Part shown: positions 40,190 through 55,998 of the stretch, one piece after another
Position numbering within the stretch: the stretch's first letter is position 1
How the letters are laid out: each line of letters opens with the position of its first letter
NCBI RefSeq assembly: GCF_901538265.1
Contig: NZ_LR593886.1
Span: 5,911,738-5,975,737 of the forward strand
DNA from: Gemmata massiliana
GTDB taxonomy: Bacteria > Planctomycetota > Planctomycetia > Gemmatales > Gemmataceae
Direction: 5' to 3'
DNA length: 64,000 bases
The notes under the pieces: model-generated
What the model saw: only the letters and a program-made list of their open reading frames with translations
Told to the model about the DNA's origin: nothing
Databases searched by the model: none
Position numbers and translations under genes: made by a program

Positions 40190-41138
40190 ACGCCTCGACT
40201 TGCCTCTTCAAGGGCACATCGGCAATGACTCACGGAACCCTTGTCTGTGTCTGTACAAACATTTCCGTTGCGACGCACCTCTCCAGTCGAAGGTCCGCTT
40301 CTCGAGCTGTTTCGCCATACCAACCCATCAGCGTTTCGTACCCGGCAGACATCGCATTGTGCTCCACCTCACCCTGGCGCGTCACGAGCCAACATTCCTA
40401 TTTGAAGGGTCGGTGAAGTCGTTTGTGAACCTGCGACTGAAATTGACGGGGGCGTTGGCGAGTGAAGCACGTCGGGCCACTGGTCGAATTGGCTGCATTT
40501 ATCGGTACCCCGAATGACGCGACGCTTGGATTGCTGCTTGAGGGCATGCCAGAATCGAAAGTGGCGTCCCTCACTAGCATTTGATTCGGTAGGATTTTCC
40601 GCGTTGGCGACTTTTGGGGTTGTACGGTGTTTTAGTGGCCACTAAATTACACATCCCATGACGCCCAGTGCAGAATTTCAGCTTGAAACAAGCCATATTC
40701 TGCCCAAATAACTTGGGAATTACTAAGATGCAGCACAAACAAACTAAAAAATCATCATTTCTTTTTGTAATTCTCGGAGAACTGGGAATACAAAAAAACT
40801 CCCTCCCTTACCATTCCTGTTTTTAATTTCACATTATCAATTTGCATTTTCTCCGGAACTATTGTTCAGCGAGTCGCGACTAACGGTCAAGAATCCCCTT
40901 CGACCACCTAGCGAGCAGTAAGTGTCGGAGGAGAAAGACTTTAATCGCATTTGATCCATAAAATCAACTGCAGTTGTCTATCAAAAGCCCCCAATACAGC
41001 TACAAACTTTCAGCTAGTTTGGCGTTGTCGAAGTACAAAATCTACAATTGACCAACTGACCACTTGTTACCTGAGCAAGATCCGTGACTTACCAAAACTC
41101 GGATCAGCCAACAACTAAAACCTGGCAGGTTCGTCTTC
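40190..41138. promoter_or_regulatory. Long AT-rich region before the exosortase operon
   Basis: 949 nt without a supported gene. The first 350 nt have normal composition and short ORFs of no clear coding value; from about 40600 the DNA becomes markedly AT-rich. A 16-bp perfect palindrome TTTAGTGGCCACTAAA is at 40631-40646 and is a good operator candidate. The promoter of the exosortase/Wzz operon is expected in the last 200 nt. Confidence 0.5.
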
Positions 41139-41999
41139 ATGTTCGCCAATCCCGCCCAGCGATCACTACTGCTGCCAGTTACGGCCTCATTTATCCTGCT
41201 GGGTTGGGCGTATTGGGAAACGCTTGAAGCCATTGGCGAACGGTGGGCGACAGATCCGCAGTATTCACACGGCTTTCTAGTTCCTGTGTTCGCGGGCTTT
41301 CTACTCTGGAAACGCAGAGACCTGCTGACATCCGCCGACTTCCGCCCCCGTTGGTGGGGGTGCGGTTTGGTTCTGCTCGGTGTGGGGCTGCGGTTTGCGG
41401 GCTACGCAATCTATCAATCGTGGCTTGACGCCAGTTCGCTGCTCGTTGCACTAGCCGGAATCGCCGGTGCGGCAGGGGGACGCCGGGCACTGATTTGGGC
41501 CGGCCCTGCGATCCTGTTTCTCGCGTTCATGATTCCCCTCCCGTACCAGATCCAAATGATGCTGGGCGGAACCCTCCAACGCGCGGCCACAATCGCCAGC
41601 ACGTATGTCCTCCAAACGCTCAACGTCCCCGCCGTGTCCGAAGGCAATATCATTATCCTGACTGACAGCCGACTCGGAGTGGTTGAAGCCTGTAACGGCC
41701 TGAGCATGCTGGTGACGTTCTTTGCGCTCGCAACCGGTGTGGCAATTCTCGCCGAACGAAGCACGGTTGAGAAGATCTTCATTGTCGCGAGCGCAGTTCC
41801 CATCGCGATTGCTGCGAATGTCGTTCGGATCAGTCTCACGGGTATCTTATTTGAGTTACAACGCGGTGAGTGGGCACGAATGGTATTTCACGATCTGGCT
41901 GGGTGGTTGATGATGCCTCTCGCGCTGGCCTTGCTCTTGGGCGAATTGGTCATCCTTCGACGAGCGATTCTGTACGTCCCAAGTGAAGCTACCGCGTAA
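41139..41999 (+). CDS. Exosortase (EpsH-type membrane cysteine transpeptidase)
   Basis: 286 aa with about eight membrane spans. Exosortases cleave and transfer proteins that carry a C-terminal PEP-CTERM-like signal. The three family residues are present: Cys185 (VVEACNGLSMLVTF), Arg230 (ANVVRISLTGIL) and His251 (MVFHDLAGWLMMP). The N-terminal ERWATDPQYSHGFLVPVFA block is also typical. Position next to a Wzz/BY-kinase and EpsI is the standard exosortase/exopolysaccharide context; planctomycete members of this kind are often called XrtU, which I cannot confirm here. Start ATG 41139. Confidence 0.92.
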   Translation: MFANPAQRSLLLPVTASFILLGWAYWETLEAIGERWATDPQYSHGFLVPVFAGFLLWKRRDLLTSADFRPRWWGCGLVLLGVGLRFAGYAIYQSWLDASSLLVALAGIAGAAGGRRALIWAGPAILFLAFMIPLPYQIQMMLGGTLQRAATIASTYVLQTLNVPAVSEGNIIILTDSRLGVVEACNGLSMLVTFFALATGVAILAERSTVEKIFIVASAVPIAIAANVVRISLTGILFELQRGEWARMVFHDLAGWLMMPLALALLLGELVILRRAILYVPSEATA

Positions 42000-42110
42000 C
42001 ACAATCAGTCCACACTCGGATACTAATAGGCCCTGATAAAAATCCTTGAAAACGGTCCCGACAGGGATTTGCCAGAGCCTTAATTAAAAACTCACAAGGC
42101 GTACCTACAC

Positions 42111-44351
42111 ATGACTCAAATAAGTGGCAACGGACAAGCCCCCCCGGAAAAACGCGCCACTACACTATCTGGCCGAGCAATTCTCAATGCCGTAAAGCGG
42201 CGCCCTTTTACACTACTCGGCGTCGCGATACTTGCGGCAGGCGTTGGGGCCACAGTTTGGCTCTTTCTCCCGCTCCCGAAGGCGACCGCGGCCACGGTAT
42301 TCCATATTTCGTCCCAGACCCCTTCAGTCCTCGGTCAAACAGACGGGCAGACCAACTTCGCGTCATATCGTGCGTCCCAAATCGCCCTAATCAAGCGGCG
42401 ACTGACTCTCAACAACGTGATCAAAGAACCGGCCGTCGACAACTTGGCAACCGTCAGAAAGCAACCCGACCCGATCGCGTGGCTGGAGCACGCGATCAAG
42501 ATCGACGCCCCGGTCAACAGCGAATACATGCGAGTGTCTCTCGAAGGAAACGATCCCACAGAATCGAAAATCATTCTGGAGCACCTGAGAACGGCATACC
42601 TCGCTGACGTCGACCTGCGCGATAACGGGGCCAAGCGCACGCGATTGAAGACGCTAGAAGACACGACACAGAAATACCGCAAGGACGTAGAGGATGCCCA
42701 CAAGCGAATGGATATCATCGCGGTCGCCCTCGGAACAAAAGACGAAGCGACGCTAATGACTCTCGATGCAATCCTTCGAGACGAACTCCGCCTCGCTCAA
42801 CGAGACCTGCAAACGGCAACCGAGAACGTGGCGCTAACGGTCTCCTCCCCCCCGGGAGCTAAGTCATTGGAGGAATGGGGGCCCGTGCTAACGCTCCCGT
42901 GGAACCTGGGAACCATCGAACCCGTACCCCCTATTCCCCCGGCCGAATCGCGAAGCCGAGTCGAAGCTGAAACGCGCCAAGACGCTCACCTCAAACTCCT
43001 CGATGAGGCCGTCGTCGCATCGAAGGAACGATTGAACAAGGTCAAAGAGCGCTACCAAGAGGGCGAGCAAGCTCCCGCAATTACCAAAGCTGAAAACGAT
43101 CTGAAAGCCGCGGAACAGAAGCGAGACAAGTACCGCGACGAATTACAGGCCGCGGCCGCGATAATCGCACAGAAGAAGTACGCCCAGCAAGAATTACAGC
43201 GGCGCGCCGAATTCCGGGAAAAAGTCGAAACGCTGGAGAAGCGAGAAAAAATTGCCAAAGGAAAGATCGAAGAGATAATAAAAAGAGTGTCAAAAACCAA
43301 TGATTACAAAATCGAACTCGACGGCCTCAAGCTTTCGATCGGGCAAACGGAGAAACTGAACCAATCGCTCGGAGAAACAATCGCGAGATTGAGAGTGGAA
43401 CTTGGGGCCCCTCCGCGTGTATCGTGTTCGGAAGACCCGTTCATTGTCACCGGTCTTGAGGGGAACCGACGACTGAAATTCACCGTACTCGCGGCGCTTG
43501 CGGTGTTCGGACTTGGGCTCGCGGGCGCCATTGGTTGGGAAACCCGTGCCCGGCGCGTCATTGATACCGACGACGTAACCAAAGCTCTCGGGGTACGACT
43601 GCTCGGTACCGTTCCTGTAGCCGGCCAAGAGTCGAGTAAATCGGGTCGACCAGCTCCTTCTCTCGTCGAGGCCATCGACGCAACCCGCACGATGCTGGTA
43701 CACGGCACCGACGAGCCGGACCTACGAGTTTTCGTCGTAACGAGCGCTGTTTCGGGCGAGGGCAAAACCTCTCTGACGGGACATCTTGCGATCAGCCTCG
43801 CCCGAGCCGGGTTTCGCACGCTACTCGTCGACGGTGACCTCAGAGCACCGACCGTTCACCGCGTGTTCGACGCGCCCCTCGCTCCGGGGCTGTGCGAAAT
43901 TCTGCGAGGAAGCGCCAGCATTGCGGAAGCCGTTCGGCCGACCGGAATCCCTGGCCTGTCGGCCCTTACTGCAGGTCAGTGGACGCTGGCCACGCGCCAC
44001 GCAATTGTCGGCGACCGTTGGCGCGTAACAAAGGACGAGCTTAAATCAAACTTCGACTTCGTTATCGTAGACACATCACCGCTCCTCTTGGTATCCGACA
44101 CGCTGCTGCTCGCGCGTGAGGCGGACGGGGTAGTGGTTTCCGTCTTGATGGGTGTCAGTCAAATCGCCCTCGTGGACGAAGCCGTCGCGCGACTACTAGC
44201 CGTCCGCGCCAAGGTGACAGGGGTGATTGCGAACGGCGTGCGTCACGCGGCCCACGCGTACACGCACGGCTATGGTACGATTGATCCGATCGATCACAAC
44301 GTGCCCGCCCCGGCCATTGCCGCTGGTCCGGCTACTACTGAGAGGGAATGA
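42111..44351 (+). CDS. Polysaccharide chain-length regulator fused to tyrosine autokinase (Wzc-like)
   Basis: 746 aa. A first membrane span at about 36-54, a Wzz-type periplasmic part with long coiled coils (about 170-430), a second span at about 453-475 (FTVLAALAVFGLGLAGAIGW), and a cytoplasmic BY-kinase: TSAVSGEGKTSLTGHLA (Walker A at about 548-556), LLVDGDLRAPTVHRVFD (Walker A') and DFVIVDTSPLLLVSDT (Walker B). The C-terminus has only two Tyr (HAYTHGYGT), few for the usual Tyr cluster. It controls export and chain length together with the Wza-like lipoprotein (14.7 kb). The ATG of epsI overlaps its TGA. Confidence 0.92.
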   Translation: MTQISGNGQAPPEKRATTLSGRAILNAVKRRPFTLLGVAILAAGVGATVWLFLPLPKATAATVFHISSQTPSVLGQTDGQTNFASYRASQIALIKRRLTLNNVIKEPAVDNLATVRKQPDPIAWLEHAIKIDAPVNSEYMRVSLEGNDPTESKIILEHLRTAYLADVDLRDNGAKRTRLKTLEDTTQKYRKDVEDAHKRMDIIAVALGTKDEATLMTLDAILRDELRLAQRDLQTATENVALTVSSPPGAKSLEEWGPVLTLPWNLGTIEPVPPIPPAESRSRVEAETRQDAHLKLLDEAVVASKERLNKVKERYQEGEQAPAITKAENDLKAAEQKRDKYRDELQAAAAIIAQKKYAQQELQRRAEFREKVETLEKREKIAKGKIEEIIKRVSKTNDYKIELDGLKLSIGQTEKLNQSLGETIARLRVELGAPPRVSCSEDPFIVTGLEGNRRLKFTVLAALAVFGLGLAGAIGWETRARRVIDTDDVTKALGVRLLGTVPVAGQESSKSGRPAPSLVEAIDATRTMLVHGTDEPDLRVFVVTSAVSGEGKTSLTGHLAISLARAGFRTLLVDGDLRAPTVHRVFDAPLAPGLCEILRGSASIAEAVRPTGIPGLSALTAGQWTLATRHAIVGDRWRVTKDELKSNFDFVIVDTSPLLLVSDTLLLAREADGVVVSVLMGVSQIALVDEAVARLLAVRAKVTGVIANGVRHAAHAYTHGYGTIDPIDHNVPAPAIAAGPATTERE

Positions 44352-45007
44352 CCGTGCGACTCACGATCGGACCATTGTTGTTATGCACTACAATCCTTGG
44401 AGTCGCGGGTGCAGTGCACGGGGTCCAAACGGACCGATGGAGCCCTTCCCCACATCTGTCTCGCGCTCTGGATCGTCTCCCCCACGTCCCTCAAAGTGTG
44501 GGGGACTGGAACGGGGTCGACATACCCCTTGAAGCAAACGATATGTCGCGAGCCGGAATCAAAGGTTGGATCTTCCGTGTTTACAAAAACTCTCGAACAC
44601 GAGAAGAAGTGTCGGTCCTCCTAGTTTGTGGGCGCGGCGGACCAATTAGCGTGCACACCCCGGACGTGTGCTACACGGGCGCGGGCTACCGACAAAAAGC
44701 TGATGCGACGATACAGGAAATGGAATGGGCAGAAGGAGTAAAGGGAACGTTTCGGGTTGCCCGTTTTGGCAAACCAGGGATTGTGCCCACCCAACTTGAG
44801 ATATACTGGACTTGGTCGCGCGACGGGCGCACGTGGCAGGCCCCAAACGCCCCCCGATTGTCCTTCGCACGCGAACCTGCGCTGTACAAAATGTACATTA
44901 TCCGACAGTTCGTTGCTGGATCGCGAGAAGAAAATGCAAATTCGTGTCGTGAGTTCCTGCAACGTGCCTTACCTGACTTCAATCAGGTGCTCACTGCGTC
45001 CGAGTAA
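44348..45007 (+). CDS. EpsI-family exosortase-associated protein (DUF3485)
   Basis: 219 aa with an N-terminal membrane or signal segment (LTIGPLLLCTTILGVAGAVHG). The EpsI core is PQSVGDWNGVDIPL, FRVYKNSRTREEVSVLLVCG, HTPDVCYTGAGYR (the conserved Cys in the H-x-P-x-x-C-Y motif) and EIYWTWSRDGRTW. EpsI proteins accompany exosortases in nearly all systems; their exact role is not known. ATG 44348 overlaps the Wzc stop by 4 nt (ATGA), so it is translated with it. Confidence 0.88.
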   Translation: MTVRLTIGPLLLCTTILGVAGAVHGVQTDRWSPSPHLSRALDRLPHVPQSVGDWNGVDIPLEANDMSRAGIKGWIFRVYKNSRTREEVSVLLVCGRGGPISVHTPDVCYTGAGYRQKADATIQEMEWAEGVKGTFRVARFGKPGIVPTQLEIYWTWSRDGRTWQAPNAPRLSFAREPALYKMYIIRQFVAGSREENANSCREFLQRALPDFNQVLTASE

Positions 45008-45564
45008 GCAATTGCTCCCTCGGCTCATTACGATTTAAAGCCAAAGCGAAAATATGGCGACCCAAAATCATTGAGATCTTCAGAGGCATTGTTTCGCTCC
45101 TTATGTCGCGCCAGCAAGCTACGCTCTTGAGAAGATTATCAAGAAGCCGTGCAAATTGATTGTCAATTTCACACTCCTCTTGACTGCGATTCCGATTGTC
45201 GTAACTTTCTAAATCCCTGCGCGACAGACCTCTTCGGATCTCGGCTTTTACTCTCAAATACGTGCTGAGTAGAGCGGCTGGTCTTGCTTGCTGGATCTAT
45301 GAGATCCGAATGGTGGCGAACGGCTGTGAAGCCGGGTCCGATGAGGTGAAGTTTACAGAACACCCGACCAACCGTCGTTACGTGGGCGCCCTTTTCCGCC
45401 CACGTAACAACCAATGGCCTCAACTCCGGAACGTGATCTGGAGCGACATGAGCTTGGCGGGGCCACACCCGGAATTTTCGCCCCCCTTGTCTGTATGAAC
45501 GAAACTGGTTCTTGACCGCTGTTACGTTGACAACGGTAACCTCTGAGCCAACCTCCGAATCATA
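45008..45564. other. Gap after epsI with hairpin and degenerate ORFs
   Basis: 557 nt. A hairpin with a perfect 12-bp stem (GTTACGTGGGCG at 45377-45388, complement 45397-45408, 8-nt loop) is the only clear structure. Minus-strand ORFs (44991-45257 and 45169-45606) overlap each other and are not supported. The stretch may be the ruined 5' part of a gene whose end survives as the next ORF. Confidence 0.4.
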
Positions 45565-45777
45565 TTGGGGACGGTCGTGTACCTCCTCGGTTTCTCTTAC
45601 ATCCAAGTGCGTCGGGGCATGCGGCTCCCTAATCCGCTCGTTAAAAACCGGACCGTGGGCACCGCGCCGACCTACAAAGGGATCGAGGTTATCTTCCGCG
45701 ACACTTCCACACCCAACGAAAGCGAAGACACTTTGGTTACCGAGAGCGGGCTCACCTCGTGCGGGGGAGTACCATGA
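45565..45777 (+). CDS. Small membrane ORF coupled to the polymerase gene
   Basis: 70 aa from TTG 45565. The N-terminal part (LGTVVYLLGFSYIQVRRG, with hydrophobic codons also just upstream of the start) suggests one membrane span; the rest is polar and not recognised. Its TGA overlaps the ATG of the polymerase gene (ATGA), the same coupling as between wzc and epsI, which argues that this end was or is translated. It is either a genuine small subunit or the 3' end of a broken gene. Confidence 0.45.
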   Translation: MGTVVYLLGFSYIQVRRGMRLPNPLVKNRTVGTAPTYKGIEVIFRDTSTPNESEDTLVTESGLTSCGGVP

Positions 45778-47081
45778 ACTTCGTCCTGTTCCTGCTCCTG
45801 AATGCGGTCCTCTTACTGCGCCCGGAAGAGCTCTTTCCTGAGATCGCCGGGCTGCGTCTGTACCTCCTGACCATCATCCCGTGCGTACTGCTCTCGCTAC
45901 CCCAATTGGCACACGAACTATCGCCGGGCACCCTTCGTAGGCGCCCGATTAGTGTGTGCGTGCTCCTATTCTTCTTCTCGACGATCCTCTCTTTTTTCGT
46001 TCAAGGACGTCTCGGCGAAGCACTCTTCGAGTTCGGTCCGGAGTTCGGTAAAGTGATCCTTTACTATTTTTTGTTACTTGCCACCGTCGACACCCCCAAC
46101 CGGTTTCGGACATTTGTCGCGGCTCTGGTAGCCCTCATTGGTGGGCTCACGACAATTGCTTTGGCGCAGCACTACGAGATCGTTCACTTCTCAAATATCG
46201 TTCCGTGTCTTCAAAAGGGCATGGACCCTGTTACTGGGGAGGCGACCGAACTACCCCGGCTCGTTAGTAGCGGGATATTCAATGACCCAAATGATCTGTG
46301 CCTCATGTTGGGGCTGGGCATTATGAGTTGCATTTACTGTGCAACGAGCCGGCCACAGGTTATCGGCGGGTTTCTCTGGTTACTCCCGATCCCGCTCTTC
46401 ATTTACGCGCTGATGGACACACACTCCAAGGGGGGCCTTCTGGGCGTTCTCGCTGGTGGAAGCGCGTATTTGTATTCCCGGTTCGGTGGCCCCAAAGCAC
46501 TCCCGTACGCAGCGGCAGGGGCTGTCGTAGCGGTGCTCGCGATCGGGGGTCGGCAAGCCAGTATCGGCGGAGGCGGGACGGCCCACGAGCGCCTCATGTT
46601 CTGGGCCGACGGGTTGAGCAACCTGTTTTCCCAACCGTTCTACATTCCAACCGGTTTGGGGATCGGCTGGTTTGTAAGCGAGAACGGCCTGGTGGCTCAC
46701 AATTCCTTTGTCCAAGCTTACGTCGAACTCGGGTTATTGGGGGGGGGGGCATTTCTGGCTTCGTTCTACTTGAGTGCCCGGATTTTAGATCGGTTCGGCC
46801 GCGGGGTCAATGCTCCCCATTGGGTGCTGGACGCTAAAAACTACGGGTTCGGTGTCCTCATTGGTTACGCAATGGGGTGCTATTCGCTTACACGGAATTT
46901 TACTGTCACCACCTACCTTGTGCTCGGCATTTCCTCAGTGCTACTGGCGCAAGCGTCTCACACACTTCCCAACCGGTTCCAAGTAAACAGACAGTGGTTT
47001 AACTGGTTATTCTTTATGAGTGCAGTCGGCCTCGCGGCCCTGAAACTGATGACTCAAGCAATTAGTCTCGCTGGCGTGTAA
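45774..47081 (+). CDS. O-antigen ligase/polymerase-like membrane protein (Wzy type)
   Basis: 435 aa with about eleven hydrophobic spans. The large outside loop typical of Wzy/WaaL proteins is at about 230-310 and carries DTHSKGGLLGVLAGG just before, then ERLMFWADGLSNLFSQPFY and the SENGLVAHNSFVQAYVELGL motif, where the H-N-S/x-F segment is the family's conserved site. It would join repeat units of the polysaccharide at the periplasmic face. ATG 45774 is preceded by GGGGGAG. It lies between the small ORF and the flippase gene. Confidence 0.85.
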   Translation: MNFVLFLLLNAVLLLRPEELFPEIAGLRLYLLTIIPCVLLSLPQLAHELSPGTLRRRPISVCVLLFFFSTILSFFVQGRLGEALFEFGPEFGKVILYYFLLLATVDTPNRFRTFVAALVALIGGLTTIALAQHYEIVHFSNIVPCLQKGMDPVTGEATELPRLVSSGIFNDPNDLCLMLGLGIMSCIYCATSRPQVIGGFLWLLPIPLFIYALMDTHSKGGLLGVLAGGSAYLYSRFGGPKALPYAAAGAVVAVLAIGGRQASIGGGGTAHERLMFWADGLSNLFSQPFYIPTGLGIGWFVSENGLVAHNSFVQAYVELGLLGGGAFLASFYLSARILDRFGRGVNAPHWVLDAKNYGFGVLIGYAMGCYSLTRNFTVTTYLVLGISSVLLAQASHTLPNRFQVNRQWFNWLFFMSAVGLAALKLMTQAISLAGV

Positions 47082-51220: not shown

Positions 51221-51958
51221 ATGCTGTCGTTAGCCCGTCGATTTCTGTCTCACGCACGTACTATTACCACCTTCGGTGCTCGCAATTGGCTCGCTATTGT
51301 CCGTGGCGGCCAACTCAAAACGCGGTACGCATTGTATCCTCTAGAGTTCCGCCGTGGCACCAGTGACTTGAGTGTATACCGTCAAGTTTTTGTATCCCTT
51401 GAATACGCATGTGTGCCTGATAACAAACCTATGTTGGTACTTGATTGCGGTGCCAACGTTGGCTACGCTTCGGCCTACTTCCTGACCCGTTTTCCTCGGG
51501 CGCAAGTTCTGGCTGTGGAACCCGATCCCGGCAACTTCGCTATCCTTGCCCGAAACCTTGCACCTTATGGAGACCGCGCCTGTGCGATCCACGGCGCTGT
51601 TTGGTCACACGCGACCCGTCTAAGTATGGCAGCACCCGTTTACCGCGACGGGGGAGAGTGGGCGAGACAGGTTCGTGAGGGTGGTAACGAGGTGGCTGCT
51701 TATGGCATCGCCGACCTCCTTCGGATGGTCGATTGTCAGCGGGCGGACATTCTCAAAATGGACATTGAAGGTGCAGAAGCGATTGTATTCGCGCACGGCA
51801 CTGAAGCATGGATCGACAAAGTGGGCGTGATGGCCATTGAGTTGCATAATGACACCACTTTCGGTCCAGCCTCAGAAGTGGTCGCTCGTGCGACCACTGG
51901 ATTTACTACCAGACAGAGCGGCGAATTGACCCTCTATCATAAACCGGAGTCGCGATGA
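51221..51958 (+). CDS. FkbM-family methyltransferase
   Basis: 245 aa, SAM-dependent, probably O-methylates a sugar of the polysaccharide. The fold starts at about residue 70: MLVLDCGANVGYASAYFLTR (SAM-binding motif I), VLAVEPDPGNFAILARNLAP (acidic residue after strand 2), then ADILKMDIEGAEAIVFAHGT, the hallmark KxDIEGxE motif of FkbM proteins, and GVMAIELHND. The first 60 residues are a helical N-terminal extension. Start ATG 51221. Its TGA overlaps the ATG of the glycosyltransferase, so they are one operon. Confidence 0.9.
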   Translation: MLSLARRFLSHARTITTFGARNWLAIVRGGQLKTRYALYPLEFRRGTSDLSVYRQVFVSLEYACVPDNKPMLVLDCGANVGYASAYFLTRFPRAQVLAVEPDPGNFAILARNLAPYGDRACAIHGAVWSHATRLSMAAPVYRDGGEWARQVREGGNEVAAYGIADLLRMVDCQRADILKMDIEGAEAIVFAHGTEAWIDKVGVMAIELHNDTTFGPASEVVARATTGFTTRQSGELTLYHKPESR

Positions 51959-52866
51959 TGAAAGTGTCCGTCGTCATTCCGACCTACAACTATTCCTGCT
52001 TCATCAGGGAGGCGGTAGAGAGCGCTCTAAATCAGACTTGCCCACCGTATGAGGTCATAGTCATCGACGACGGCTCGACGGACAATACGGCAGAAATCCT
52101 CAAACACTACATCGATACTGGACGCATCCGCTACCACTACCAAATGAACTCCGGCCTTTGCGCCGCGCGTAATGTGGGACTTTCATTGGCAACTGGTAGT
52201 GCCTTTGCGTTACTCGACTCAGACGATAGCTGGCACCCTCAAAAACTTGAGTGCCAAATTGCGTACCTGGAAACAAACCCCGCGTGTGAATTGGTCGGTA
52301 CGGAGGCTTTCAGTCAAGAGCGGGGAATGTGGGCGACAATCGGCTCCCTCACCGTAAATGCCCTGCCACTGGAAACCCACCTACTCCGTACTCGTTTCTG
52401 CCCTTCCTCAGCCCTCTTCCGTCGTTCACTGTGGGAACAAGTTGGTGGATTCGATCAGGCCGCGGGTGGCACGGCCGACCGCGACTACTGGATTCGCTGC
52501 GCCGCCGTTTCGGTCGTCGCTCGAATCGAATTACCCCTGACTTTTTACCGCATCCACAACGGGTCGATGACCGCAACAAAGGTAGACGCGATGATCGCCA
52601 GCGAACGGGCTGTACTCGACAAGTCATTTATCTCACTCTCAACGATTCGTGGCAGAATGCTACTAAAGCGCCGAGCATACGCTATGGCTCACCTTTCTGC
52701 CGCCTACACCCTTTGGCGGGACGCCAAACGCCCGCGTGCAGCAAGTGGCCAATTCTTTCGATCACTGTTGTCTTGGCCACTGCCTCTTTCGCGATCTGAT
52801 ACTAATATTCCATTTTACCGGTTGCGGTTTGGTGCCCGACTCCTCATAGCGGCGTTACGAGGTTAA
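51955..52866 (+). CDS. Family 2 glycosyltransferase
   Basis: 303 aa, GT-A fold. It starts VSVVIPTYNYSCFIREAVES, then EVIVIDDGSTDNTAEIL, LCAARNVGLSLATGSAFALL and LDSDDSW, where the D-x-D motif binds the metal and the nucleotide-sugar; the D-Y-W-I-R-C segment near residue 175 holds the catalytic-base region typical of GT2. It probably adds a sugar to the lipid-linked unit. The start may be ATG 51955 or 51958 (ATGATG); the first overlaps the FkbM stop by 4 nt. ISAs1 element A is 120 nt downstream. Confidence 0.92.
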   Translation: MMKVSVVIPTYNYSCFIREAVESALNQTCPPYEVIVIDDGSTDNTAEILKHYIDTGRIRYHYQMNSGLCAARNVGLSLATGSAFALLDSDDSWHPQKLECQIAYLETNPACELVGTEAFSQERGMWATIGSLTVNALPLETHLLRTRFCPSSALFRRSLWEQVGGFDQAAGGTADRDYWIRCAAVSVVARIELPLTFYRIHNGSMTATKVDAMIASERAVLDKSFISLSTIRGRMLLKRRAYAMAHLSAAYTLWRDAKRPRAASGQFFRSLLSWPLPLSRSDTNIPFYRLRFGARLLIAALRG

Positions 52867-52985: not shown

Positions 52986-54193
52986 CCAGGGCCGGCGCAC
53001 TTCATTTAGTCGTCAGAATCTTAAGCACTTTGAGCAGGTATTGATCGTCCCAGGCGGCCTTCATGCGTCGAGTACGAATGCTGCCCTTGGTGTCCGCCCG
53101 CTGGAGCAGGGACAGGGCAACCCGGCGAATCATGCCCAGGTTGGCCCCGGCGTGTCCGGCCCGAGCCCGGCTGTCGTCTTCCCGGAACGCGATGTCCAGA
53201 CACCAATGGAGCCCGTTCTCAATGCCCCAATGGTTGCGGATGTACCCCGCCAGCTCGACCGCCCCGATCCGCAAGCTGGTGAGGTAGTAATGAGCGGTGC
53301 TCTCATTCGGCTTCCCGTTCACCACCCGCTCCCGGCACACCAGGGCCACGGCCCCAACATCGGCCCACCCGCTCGGTAGCCCTTCCGGATCTTCAACCAC
53401 CGTCACGTACCGCTCTTCCTCGCGCCCGTGCCCGTCCTCGACCGCGGACCCCATGTCACACCCGGCGAACGCGTCCTCCCCGGCCCGCGCGAACACCTCC
53501 GCCACCGCGCCGCGCAACCCCTTCTGGTTCCCCTTCACGCACACCACGTAATGCCCGCCCTGGGTGCGGATCTGGGACACCAACTCCTTCTGGCAAAAGG
53601 CCGCGTCGACGGTCACCACCGCGCCCGTCAGATCCAGGGCGCCCAACAGATCTGGGGCCGTGGTGATCTCGTGTCCGCCCTCGGGCACGGACCGCTGGCC
53701 CAGGATCAACCGGTTCTCCACGGCCCACGCCTCGACCAGATGCAAGCACCCGGTGAACGTGTTCTTGGTGGACCGCCGGGCGCTCTTACCATCGATCGCC
53801 ACGTGCACCAGGCCGGTACTCTCGCATGCGGCTGCCATCCAGCGCCCGAACCGGTCCGCGAACGCGTCCGGGTCCAGCTTGGCGAACACGCGCTCGAACG
53901 TGTCCGGGCTCGGAACCCCGTGGGGCAACCGCAGGTACGGGGCGAACAACGTTTGCTTGGCCCGACCGAACGCGGCCACCTGGTCCCACCCGTCGGCCCC
54001 GGCGATCACCGCACACGTGGCCAACGTGAGGATATCCACCAGCTCATGCAACTTGTTCTTCGTTTCGCGGCGCGGGTCTGGCACATCCGCAAACACCGCC
54101 AGCAGCGGAATACTCATCGGGGTTCCTCCATAACAACCCCGATATAGACGTAAATGCGGCTGCCGTCACGGGTTCATAGTGCGCCAACCCTGG
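52986..54193 (-). mobile_element. ISAs1-family element A, complete
   Basis: 1208 bp. Its ends are a 16-bp inverted pair (52986-53001, CCAGGGCCGGCGCACT, and 54178-54193) with two mismatches. The element is flanked by a perfect 8-bp direct repeat AGTAAACC (52978-52985 and 54194-54201), the target duplication. The transposase is intact. All this points to a recent insertion. Confidence 0.93.
53002..54117 (-). CDS. ISAs1-family transposase (element A)
   Basis: 371 aa, full length. An N-terminal DDE_Tnp_1-associated region (LAVFADVPDPRRETKNKLHE, VDILTLATCAVIAGADGWDQ) and the catalytic domain: VHVAIDGKSARRS (Asp), AVVTVDAAFCQKE (Asp) and WGIENGLHWCLDIAFREDDS (Glu). No frameshift. ATG 54117 is the natural start. 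About three quarters of residues agree with the element B transposase, so the two are related but distinct isoforms. Confidence 0.94.
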   Translation of the reverse strand: MSIPLLAVFADVPDPRRETKNKLHELVDILTLATCAVIAGADGWDQVAAFGRAKQTLFAPYLRLPHGVPSPDTFERVFAKLDPDAFADRFGRWMAAACESTGLVHVAIDGKSARRSTKNTFTGCLHLVEAWAVENRLILGQRSVPEGGHEITTAPDLLGALDLTGAVVTVDAAFCQKELVSQIRTQGGHYVVCVKGNQKGLRGAVAEVFARAGEDAFAGCDMGSAVEDGHGREEERYVTVVEDPEGLPSGWADVGAVALVCRERVVNGKPNESTAHYYLTSLRIGAVELAGYIRNHWGIENGLHWCLDIAFREDDSRARAGHAGANLGMIRRVALSLLQRADTKGSIRTRRMKAAWDDQYLLKVLKILTTK

Positions 54194-54793: not shown

Positions 54794-55998
54794 CAGGGCG
54801 TGCGCACTATGAACGGCTGACGGTGTAGGGTTTTATGTCTACACCGAGGGCATCTGGAGGATATCCAATGCCCCTCGCGCTGACCACGGTGTTTGCGGAC
54901 CTGCCCGACCCACGGATCGAGACTGCCAACAAGTTGCACCCGCTGACGGACATCCTGGTGATCGCGACGTGCGCGGTGATCGCTGGGGCCGACGGGTGGG
55001 AGGAGATCGCCGAGTACGGACAGAGCAAGGAGGACTTCTTTCGACGGTTCCTCGAACTGCCCAACGGGGTGCCGAGCCACGATACATTCGAGCGCGTGTT
55101 CGCCAAACTCGATCCCGATGCGTTCGCCGACCGGTTCGGGCGCGGGATGCGCGCGTTGTGCGAATCGACGGGGTTGGTCCACATCGCGGTCGACGGGAAG
55201 AGCGCACGGCGTTCGGCCCAAGGCACGTTCACCGGGTGCCTGCACTTGGTCAGCGCATGGGCCACCGAGAGCCGCCTGATCCTGGGCCAGCGGTCGGTGC
55301 CCGAGGGCGGGCACGAGATCACCACGGTGCCCGACCTGTTGGCCGCGCTGAACCTGAACGGCGCGGTGGTGACGCTGGACGCGGCCGGGTGTCAGAAGGC
55401 CACGGTCGAGCAGATCCGCCAGCAGGGTGGGGACTATGTGGTGTGCGTGAAGGGGAACCAGAAGGGGCTGCACGACGCCGTGGCCGACGTGTTCGACCGC
55501 GCCGGGGGCGCGGAGCTCGCGGGGTGCGACATGGCGGGCGAGGCGGGTGTGGGGCACGGGCGCGAGGAAGAGCGGTACGTGACTGTGGTCCAAGACCCCG
55601 AGGGCTTGCCGGGCGGGTGGACCGATGTCGGCGCGGTCGCACTGGTGTGTCGGGAGCGCCGGGCCAAAGGCCAGAAGAGCGAAGGCACGGGGCACTACTA
55701 CATCACCAGCTTGCGCGCGCGCGCGGCGGTGTTGGCGGGTTACATCCGGAACCATTGGGGCATCGAGAATGGGCTGCATTGGGTGTTGGACGTGGCGTTC
55801 CGTGAGGACGATAGCCGCGCCCGCACCGGACACGCGGCAGCGAATCTGGGGATGCTCCGGCGCGTGGCCGTGTCCCTGTTGACGCGCACCAAGGTCAAAG
55901 GCAGTATCAAAACCCGGCGCATGAAGGCCGGGTGGGATGACAACTACCTACTGCAAGTTATCCAAGGAATTACAGCCTAATAAAGTGCGCACGCCCTG
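54794..55998 (+). mobile_element. ISAs1-family element B, complete
   Basis: 1205 bp. The ends are a perfect 15-bp inverted pair (CAGGGCGTGCGCACT at 54794-54808, complement at 55984-55998), flanked by a perfect 10-bp direct repeat GGGCGACCCG (54784-54793 and 55999-56008). The transposase is intact and the element points the opposite way to element A. The separate target duplications show the two inserted independently. Confidence 0.93.
54868..55980 (+). CDS. ISAs1-family transposase (element B)
   Basis: 370 aa. Same layout as element A: LTTVFADLPDPRIETANKLH, DILVIATCAVIAGADGWEEI, VHIAVDGKSARRSA (Asp), AVVTLDAAGCQKA (Asp) and WGIENGLHWVLDVAFREDDS (Glu). No frameshift. The frame is open to 54835, but ATG 54868 (MPLALTT) gives the family N-terminus and has GGAGG just upstream (54856-54860). 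Confidence 0.94.
   Translation: MPLALTTVFADLPDPRIETANKLHPLTDILVIATCAVIAGADGWEEIAEYGQSKEDFFRRFLELPNGVPSHDTFERVFAKLDPDAFADRFGRGMRALCESTGLVHIAVDGKSARRSAQGTFTGCLHLVSAWATESRLILGQRSVPEGGHEITTVPDLLAALNLNGAVVTLDAAGCQKATVEQIRQQGGDYVVCVKGNQKGLHDAVADVFDRAGGAELAGCDMAGEAGVGHGREEERYVTVVQDPEGLPGGWTDVGAVALVCRERRAKGQKSEGTGHYYITSLRARAAVLAGYIRNHWGIENGLHWVLDVAFREDDSRARTGHAAANLGMLRRVAVSLLTRTKVKGSIKTRRMKAGWDDNYLLQVIQGITA

What the first reader, a model, noticed from the sequence alone, without database searches (positions are those of the whole stretch)
41139..47081. Exosortase module inside an exopolysaccharide operon with no visible substrate
Seen: exosortase with Cys185, Arg230 and His251, a Wzz/BY-kinase and EpsI joined by an ATGA overlap, then a polymerase. 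Known: exosortases act on proteins with a C-terminal PEP-CTERM-type signal. I looked at the C-termini of the secreted proteins in this window (15861, 60413, 34210, 28792) and none ends with a motif, membrane span and basic tail. So either the substrates lie elsewhere or this planctomycete type uses a different signal.
Basis: partly seen in the sequence, partly recalled or inferred. Interest (0 to 1): 0.6.

Follow-up and report, generated by a model that had tools for sequence, protein, structure and literature searches.

The report
Exosortase in exopolysaccharide locus, substrates elsewhere
This is a genuine protein-sorting enzyme embedded in a slime-making gene cluster of a Gemmata-like bacterium; its likely target proteins are scattered around the genome, and the enzyme's own branch seems to go with a slightly altered version of the usual sorting tag.

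Summary
The module is real: exosortase (Cys185, Arg230, His251), Wzz/BY-kinase, EpsI, Wzy-like and Wzx-like genes. The puzzle is mostly solved. I found no substrate in the window or its 20-kb flanks, but read 24 secreted proteins elsewhere in the genome with motif, membrane span and basic tail: 14 PEP-CTERM and 10 with Pro-Ala-Pro ("PAP") instead. Exosortase and PEP-CTERM co-occur in the family (both 74, one alone 8 and 1, neither 12) and the phylum (44/4/9/62 of 119). The genome has three exosortases of different clades. The window's clade may prefer PAP tails: all 10 of its genomes have PAP-profile matches, against 17 of 85 others, and such a gene lies within 30 kb of 5 of its 10 exosortases but 0 of 25 others in those genomes; a matched PEP profile gives 0 of 10. 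No NCBIfam or Pfam cut-off was reached by the PAP proteins scanned. This pairing is inferred, partly post hoc, and confounded by kinship.

The parts
41139..41999 (+). exosortase (286 aa, about 8 predicted TM helices, Cys185/Arg230/His251)
   Evidence: PF09721, TIGR02602, TIGR04178 over cut-off; trees; AF2 model pLDDT 88.7
42111..44351 (+). Wzz-like chain-length regulator fused to BY-type tyrosine kinase
   Evidence: TIGR01007 over cut-off; GEGKT P-loop and LLVDGDLR read; next to the exosortase in 10 of 10 window-clade loci
44348..45007 (+). EpsI (DUF3485), exosortase partner with invariant HxPxxC, ATGA overlap with the kinase gene
   Evidence: PF11984 over cut-off; H103, P105, C108, K181, Y183 invariant in 46 aligned; AF2 model pLDDT 94.5
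45759..47081 (+). Wzy-like polymerase
   Evidence: weak PF04932, below cut-off; homologue in the same position in L022, L025, L054, L231
47175..48773 (+). Wzx-like flippase
   Evidence: PF13440 over cut-off; same position in L022, L025, L054, L231
39329..40189 (+). sugar-1-phosphate nucleotidylyltransferase, probably of the same EPS locus
   Evidence: PF00483 over cut-off; 949 nt before the exosortase
51221..51958 (+). FkbM methyltransferase, possible EPS modification gene
   Evidence: PF05050 over cut-off
51955..52866 (+). family 2 glycosyltransferase, possible EPS gene
   Evidence: PF00535 over cut-off

Best explanation
An ordinary-in-kind exosortase sits in a Wzx/Wzy-type exopolysaccharide locus and acts in trans on scattered secreted proteins that carry a C-terminal motif, membrane span and basic tail. 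Inferred mechanism: the substrate crosses the inner membrane by its N-terminal signal peptide and is held by its C-terminal helix; Cys185, with Arg230 and His251, cuts near the motif; the released protein leaves with, or is joined to, envelope or exopolysaccharide material. The kinase/Wzz, Wzy and Wzx make the polymer, and EpsI assists the exosortase in an unknown way. Of the genome's three exosortases, this one more likely serves the PAP subclass (my estimate about 0.5), while a K-clade exosortase alone coexists with PEP tails (G015). Shown: the genes, conserved residues and order, the scattered tails, co-occurrence, PAP co-localisation in relatives. Inferred: catalysis, acceptor, specificity. 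The confidence given is for the general statement, not for the PAP preference.
For: Family matches; conserved catalytic letters; exosortase, kinase and EpsI together in 10 of 10 window-clade loci, with Wzy and Wzx next in order in 5 of them (WIN, L022, L025, L054, L231). TIGR02595 in the own genome: 14 hits at E<=10, 11 over cut-off (10 PEP tails and the PAP tail L014); 13 are true C-terminal tails and the one at L016 is not. A profile of those 13 adds more. 23 of 24 tail proteins have a signal peptide by a crude script; the 24th (L017) was outside the script's start filter and has one by eye. Exosortase/PEP-CTERM co-occurrence: family 74/8/1/12 of 95 (Fisher 3e-9), phylum sample 44/4/9/62 of 119 (6e-19). 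G015: one exosortase (K clade), 8 PEP matches, its one PAP-profile match is a PEP tail by sequence. PAP: 10 of 10 window-clade genomes positive against 17 of 85; within 30 kb 5 of 10 against 0 of 25 other exosortases of the same genomes.
Against: No cleavage or specificity was tested. In this genome the nearest PAP match is about 460 kb from the window's exosortase. K (17 of 23) and solo (12 of 14) clades also associate with PAP genomes, so kinship confounds the genome count. PAP tails occur without the window clade (G010, G016, G024, G026 and others). At close range (9 kb) the window clade shows one PAP locus (L285) and one PEP locus (L029) among 10, no difference. L281 (G008), sister to the clade, has no PAP match. 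In the phylum sample 9 of 53 PEP-positive genomes had no exosortase hit and 4 of 48 exosortase-positive ones no PEP hit.
Confidence: 0.85

Rival explanations
1. All three exosortases act on one pool of tails; PAP is just sequence drift of PEP-CTERM without a dedicated enzyme.
For: PAP tails occur in genomes without the window clade; PEP and PAP profiles cross-hit (G037:C151, G045:C18, G026:305988 and G010 L193 are PEP tails found by the PAP profile); kinship confounds the counts.
Against: PAP genes lie within 30 kb of 5 of 10 window-clade exosortases but of none of the other 25 in the same genomes; PEP genes from a matched profile lie within 30 kb of 0 of those 10 (expected 0.39).
Confidence: 0.4
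2. The module has an unrelated, still unseen substrate class with another signal.
For: No named Xrt type model is reached by any of the three exosortases; nearest visible tails in this genome are far away.
Against: In L285 (G045) two genes with tripartite tails, ending in a PAP and a PVP motif, lie 2.3 kb and 0.2 kb upstream of a window-clade exosortase.
Confidence: 0.1
3. The exosortase is a relic without function.
For: Two other exosortases are present.
Against: Catalytic letters kept and frame open; exosortase, kinase and EpsI kept together in 10 of 10 clade members from three genera.
Confidence: 0.04

Closest known systems
PEP-CTERM/EpsH (exosortase) system, Haft et al. 2006, PMC1569441
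   Same: 8-TM EpsH in an exopolysaccharide locus, EpsI beside it, scattered secreted proteins with motif, TM helix and basic tail; Planctomycetes are among the organisms of that paper (passages and section 5 read).
   Different: The exosortase reaches no type-specific NCBIfam cut-off; 10 of 24 tails read have PAP where that paper calls PEP near-invariant.
XrtD/VPLPA-CTERM (TIGR04152/TIGR03370)
   Same: TIGR04152 is the best-scoring type model for the window exosortase (163.8 bits), and the PAP tails L108 and L110 weakly match TIGR03370.
   Different: All far under the curated cut-offs (400 and 25.35); the tails read mostly xPAPAG, not VPLPA.
Cyanoexosortase B of Nostoc punctiforme, PMC12188702 (passages read)
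   Same: Exosortase in a Wzx/Wzy-type polysaccharide locus; deletion affects polysaccharide retention, biofilm and PEP-CTERM proteins outside the cell.
   Different: A single exosortase there against three here; the window exosortase scores 40.1 bits with the CrtB model, cut-off 300.

Membership tests
Exosortase (EpsH) family | PF09721/TIGR02602 profile over cut-off | tested here: met
   198.4 (25.7) and 149.4 (105.55) bits
Exosortase (EpsH) family | conserved Cys, Arg, His | tested here: met
   C185, R230, H251; 155/155, 155/155, 154/155 in the alignment
Exosortase (EpsH) family | about eight TM helices | tested here: met
   AF2 model, pLDDT 88.7, series of long helices; helices judged by eye, no TM predictor was run
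Exosortase (EpsH) family | cleaves and transfers C-terminal-tailed proteins | not testable with these tools
   needs an experiment
Named types XrtA, B, C, D, V, W and others | type-specific NCBIfam cut-off | tested here: not met
   none reached by the window exosortase or by the other two
EpsI | PF11984 over cut-off | tested here: met
   41.2 (26.1) bits
EpsI | TIGR02914 over cut-off | tested here: not met
   21.9 (42.8) bits
PEP-CTERM proteins (TIGR02595) in this genome | C-terminal TIGR02595 match over cut-off on a secreted protein | tested here: met
   10 PEP tails over cut-off, read as C-terminal tails; of the 14 PEP proteins, L015 and L017 were listed under the cut-off and L103, L104 were not listed
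PAP tails as TIGR02595 members | TIGR02595 over cut-off 16 | tested here: not met
   of ten PAP proteins only L014 was listed at E<=10 (15.3 bits; 16 with its neighbours, just at the cut-off), the other nine were not
VPLPA-CTERM (TIGR03370) | cut-off 25.35 | tested here: not met
   14.3 (L108) and 14.8 (L110) bits; no listed match for the other 7 PAP proteins scanned, L113 not scanned

The most novel reading that the evidence does not exclude
The window's exosortase belongs to an unnamed Gemmataceae clade that is the dedicated processing enzyme of an undescribed PAP-CTERM signal, sharpest as [Thr/Ala]-Pro-Ala-Pro-Ala-Gly, while other exosortases of the same cell take PEP-CTERM: a two-channel sorting system in one genome. 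EpsI, with an invariant HxPxxC and a fold of the Mog1/PsbP kind that also resembles chaperones holding membrane helices, might present the substrate's C-terminal helix (pure speculation from a weak fold match).
Probability: 0.45. Interest if true: 0.6.

Novelty: new variant of a known kind. Interest (0 to 1): 0.42.

Why it matters
Several exosortases in one genome are common in this family, and as far as I know (recall) which one serves which tail is seldom established. A clade-specific enzyme with a recognisable tail variant, in a genus with cultured members, would make exosortase specificity directly testable by swapping one or a few tail residues, and would add a PAP class that the models searched here leave unannotated.

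Tried and rejected
A substrate in the window or within 20 kb: none by PEP and PAP profiles. A genome without ordinary tails: rejected. Exosortase-positive genomes without PEP-CTERM: G013, G016 and G026 do carry readable tails just above the E cut-off of 0.05; for G012, G056, G057, G061 and G066 I read none, but three loci at contig edges (L127, L128, L135) and L133, L136, L142 were not read.

Genome-level association of PAP with the window clade as sole proof: set aside, because K and solo clades associate too. Tails classed by the residue before PAP (post hoc): Thr/Ala in 8 of 10 window-clade genomes and in 2 of the 16 other PAP-positive genomes of which I read a tail (G088, G092, whose exosortases L233 and L234 are near the clade in one or both trees). 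Not read among the matches at E<=1e-6: the one of G034, the second of G037, one each of G000 and G092, two each of G009 and G045. Of the five co-localised cases, the nearest PAP tail is of the Thr/Ala kind in three (G009, G045, G087) and of the Val kind in two (G044, G089). L234 (G092) is a weak sister to the clade in one tree and outside in the other, so main counts are given without it; with L233 and L234 the 30-kb count is 7 of 12 against 0 of 29. Four radii were tried: 10 kb 1/10 v 0/25, 30 and 50 kb 5/10 v 0/25, 100 kb 5/10 v 1/25. The nearest PEP hit of the matched profile to a window-clade exosortase is in G011, about 50 kb away.

Fold searches: no PDB relative of the exosortase by sequence at E<=0.01 or by Foldseek at E<=0.001; best by VIA was DgkA, Z 8.4, rmsd 7.0, 103 aligned, not meaningful for helices. 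EpsI: no Foldseek match at E<=0.001; by sequence only one weak chance-like hit, E 0.08; VIA SciW Z 8.4 (rmsd 3.9, 126 aligned), PsbP 8.0, EagT6 7.9, DcrB 7.8, MOG1 7.7, in the range of common arrangements. PADLOC: nothing for exosortase and kinase. Literature: 'PAP-CTERM' is in 0 papers of the held library, and 'PEP-CTERM' with 'Pro-Ala-Pro' in 0; subscription papers are mostly not held. Haft 2012 is not held, so later type names rest on NCBIfam and recall.

Rows dropped: in the trees, loci that duplicate others and the short or archaeal matches L086-L089 were left out. The exosortase table was cut by the tool, so weak exosortases (such as the second of G010) were never fetched: 69 of the 82 exosortase-positive family genomes were typed; in the ten window-clade genomes all 35 exosortases were in the test. 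Fisher and Mann-Whitney values are not corrected for kinship. That no PEP hit lies within 30 kb was read by eye from the rows and fed; TIGR02595 gives one such case (G014, L029). One PAP tail (G051) lies 4.6 kb from an exosortase outside the clade (L059).

Full report
What is there. The exosortase (41139-41999) passes the family cut-offs and keeps Cys185, Arg230 and His251. The kinase (42111-44351) and EpsI (44348-45007) share ATGA. A Wzy-like gene follows after 751 nt, then a Wzx-like gene. No type-specific exosortase model of NCBIfam is reached. The window lies at 5911738-5975737 of a single 10,135,216-base contig. That the organism is Gemmata-like is my inference.

Where the substrates are. 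The Pfam exosortase model finds three exosortases in the genome. TIGR02595, run over the whole genome at E<=10, gives 14 matches, 11 over the cut-off; 13 are C-terminal tails of secreted proteins and one (L016) is not. A profile made from those 13 finds more. Reading the letters gives 24 proteins: 14 with PEP, of which 10 pass the TIGR02595 cut-off, and 10 with PAP. All 24 have a hydrophobic stretch and basic residues after the motif, and 23 have a signal peptide by a crude script; the other was outside the script's start filter. None was found in the window or in the two 20-kb flanks (that scan missed two known PEP tails elsewhere, so it is not fully sensitive). Single-gene PEP-CTERM operons are what Haft et al. 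described in 2006 for most cases, with Planctomycetes among the organisms (PMC1569441; passages, section 5). The question "where is the substrate" is therefore answered in the ordinary way.

Co-occurrence. In 95 genomes of the family, 82 have an exosortase and 75 a PEP-CTERM match at E<=0.05: both 74, exosortase only 8, tail only 1, neither 12 (Fisher 3e-9). Three of the eight exceptions (G013, G016, G026) carry readable tails just over the threshold. In 119 genomes drawn from the phylum, the own one included, the table is 44, 4, 9, 62.

Which exosortase does what. A tree of 155 exosortases puts the window's in a clade of ten (FastTree support 0.982), from G000, G009, G011, G014 (the own genus), G044, G045, G046, and G087, G089, G090. 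All ten have the kinase and EpsI next door. The other two exosortases of this genome fall in a "K" clade (kinase next to it in 23 of 23, EpsI near in 21 of 23, some loci ending at contig edges) and a "solo" clade (neither in 14 of 14). G015 has one exosortase, of the K clade, with 8 PEP-CTERM matches and no PAP tail by sequence, so the K clade alone coexists with PEP.

The PAP association. A profile of the ten own PAP tails, at E<=1e-6, matches 27 of 95 genomes; for one of these (G037) the match read is a PEP tail, and G034 was not read. All ten window-clade genomes are among the 27, against 17 of 85 others. K and solo clades associate as well, so this count alone proves little. Within the own genus the four window-clade genomes have 11, 9, 7 and 2 matches, the fifteen others 0 to 4. 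The better evidence is position: a PAP gene lies within 30 kb of 5 of 10 window-clade exosortases (0.23 expected) and of 0 of 25 other exosortases in the same genomes (0.54 expected). A matched PEP profile gives 84 hits in the same genomes plus G088 and G092, none within 30 kb of the window-clade or sister exosortases (0.39 expected for the ten); TIGR02595 gives one (G014, 3.3 kb). Within 9 kb there is one PAP locus and one PEP locus among the ten, so the signal comes from 10-30 kb. The PAP locus is L285 (G045), with a PAP gene 2.3 kb and a PVP gene 0.2 kb upstream. Thr or Ala stands before PAP in tails of 8 of 10 window-clade genomes, and Val or Ile in the PAP tails read of the other genomes, except G088 and G092, whose exosortases L233 and L234 are near the clade; this split was noticed after the fact, and two of the five co-localised cases (G044, G089) are of the Val kind. 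In the own genome six PAP tails are of the Thr/Ala kind and four of the Val kind.

Against it. In the own genome no PAP gene is near: the closest match is about 460 kb away. PAP tails without the clade exist, one of them 4.6 kb from an exosortase of another clade (L059, G051). The profile was made from the own genome's tails and favours its relatives. Nothing here shows cleavage.

Mechanism. By homology, the enzyme cuts membrane-held substrates near the motif by way of Cys185; this step, the acceptor and the role of EpsI are inferred. EpsI has an invariant HxPxxC (46 aligned; the motif is in 99 of 99 hits over 150 bits). Its model (pLDDT 94.5) resembles a group that includes PsbP, MOG1, SciW and EagT6 only at the level of a common arrangement; the entry titles say that SciW was solved with a transmembrane domain of Rhs1 and EagT6 with the N-terminus of Tse6.

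Verdict. A known kind of system with its substrates elsewhere, plus a moderately supported, testable pairing between an unnamed exosortase clade and a PAP tail variant that the libraries searched here do not name and that two literature searches made for it did not find.

Noticed in passing
window 44348-45007; alignment A5: EpsI has invariant His103, Pro105, Cys108, Lys181 and Tyr183 in 46 aligned sequences and a weak fold likeness to SciW/EagT6.
   Followed up: partly
L019 6697-9048 and relatives: The kinase beside K-clade exosortases usually fails a strict Walker A pattern (1 of 23 pass, against 10 of 10 in the window clade); letters shown often read GDEGKA. A spacing artefact of the pattern is possible for some rows.
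   Followed up: partly
L046, L048, L167, L309, L311, L318, L322: Long exosortase frames (586-800 aa) have a PEP-CTERM gene 0 to 524 nt away.
   Followed up: no
window 53002-54117 (-) and 54835-55980 (+): Two DDE transposases of the same type (PF13808, PF01609) in opposite orientation just after the EPS genes.
   Followed up: partly
G104, G113, G130, G144, G159, G185, G196, G200, G210: Nine genomes of the phylum sample have PEP-CTERM matches but no exosortase match; several are incomplete, but G104 has 14 and G196 15 matches.
   Followed up: no
window 40190-41138 and 45008-45758: Two long gaps without a gene that I called flank the exosortase, kinase and EpsI genes; not examined for promoters or RNA.
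   Followed up: no
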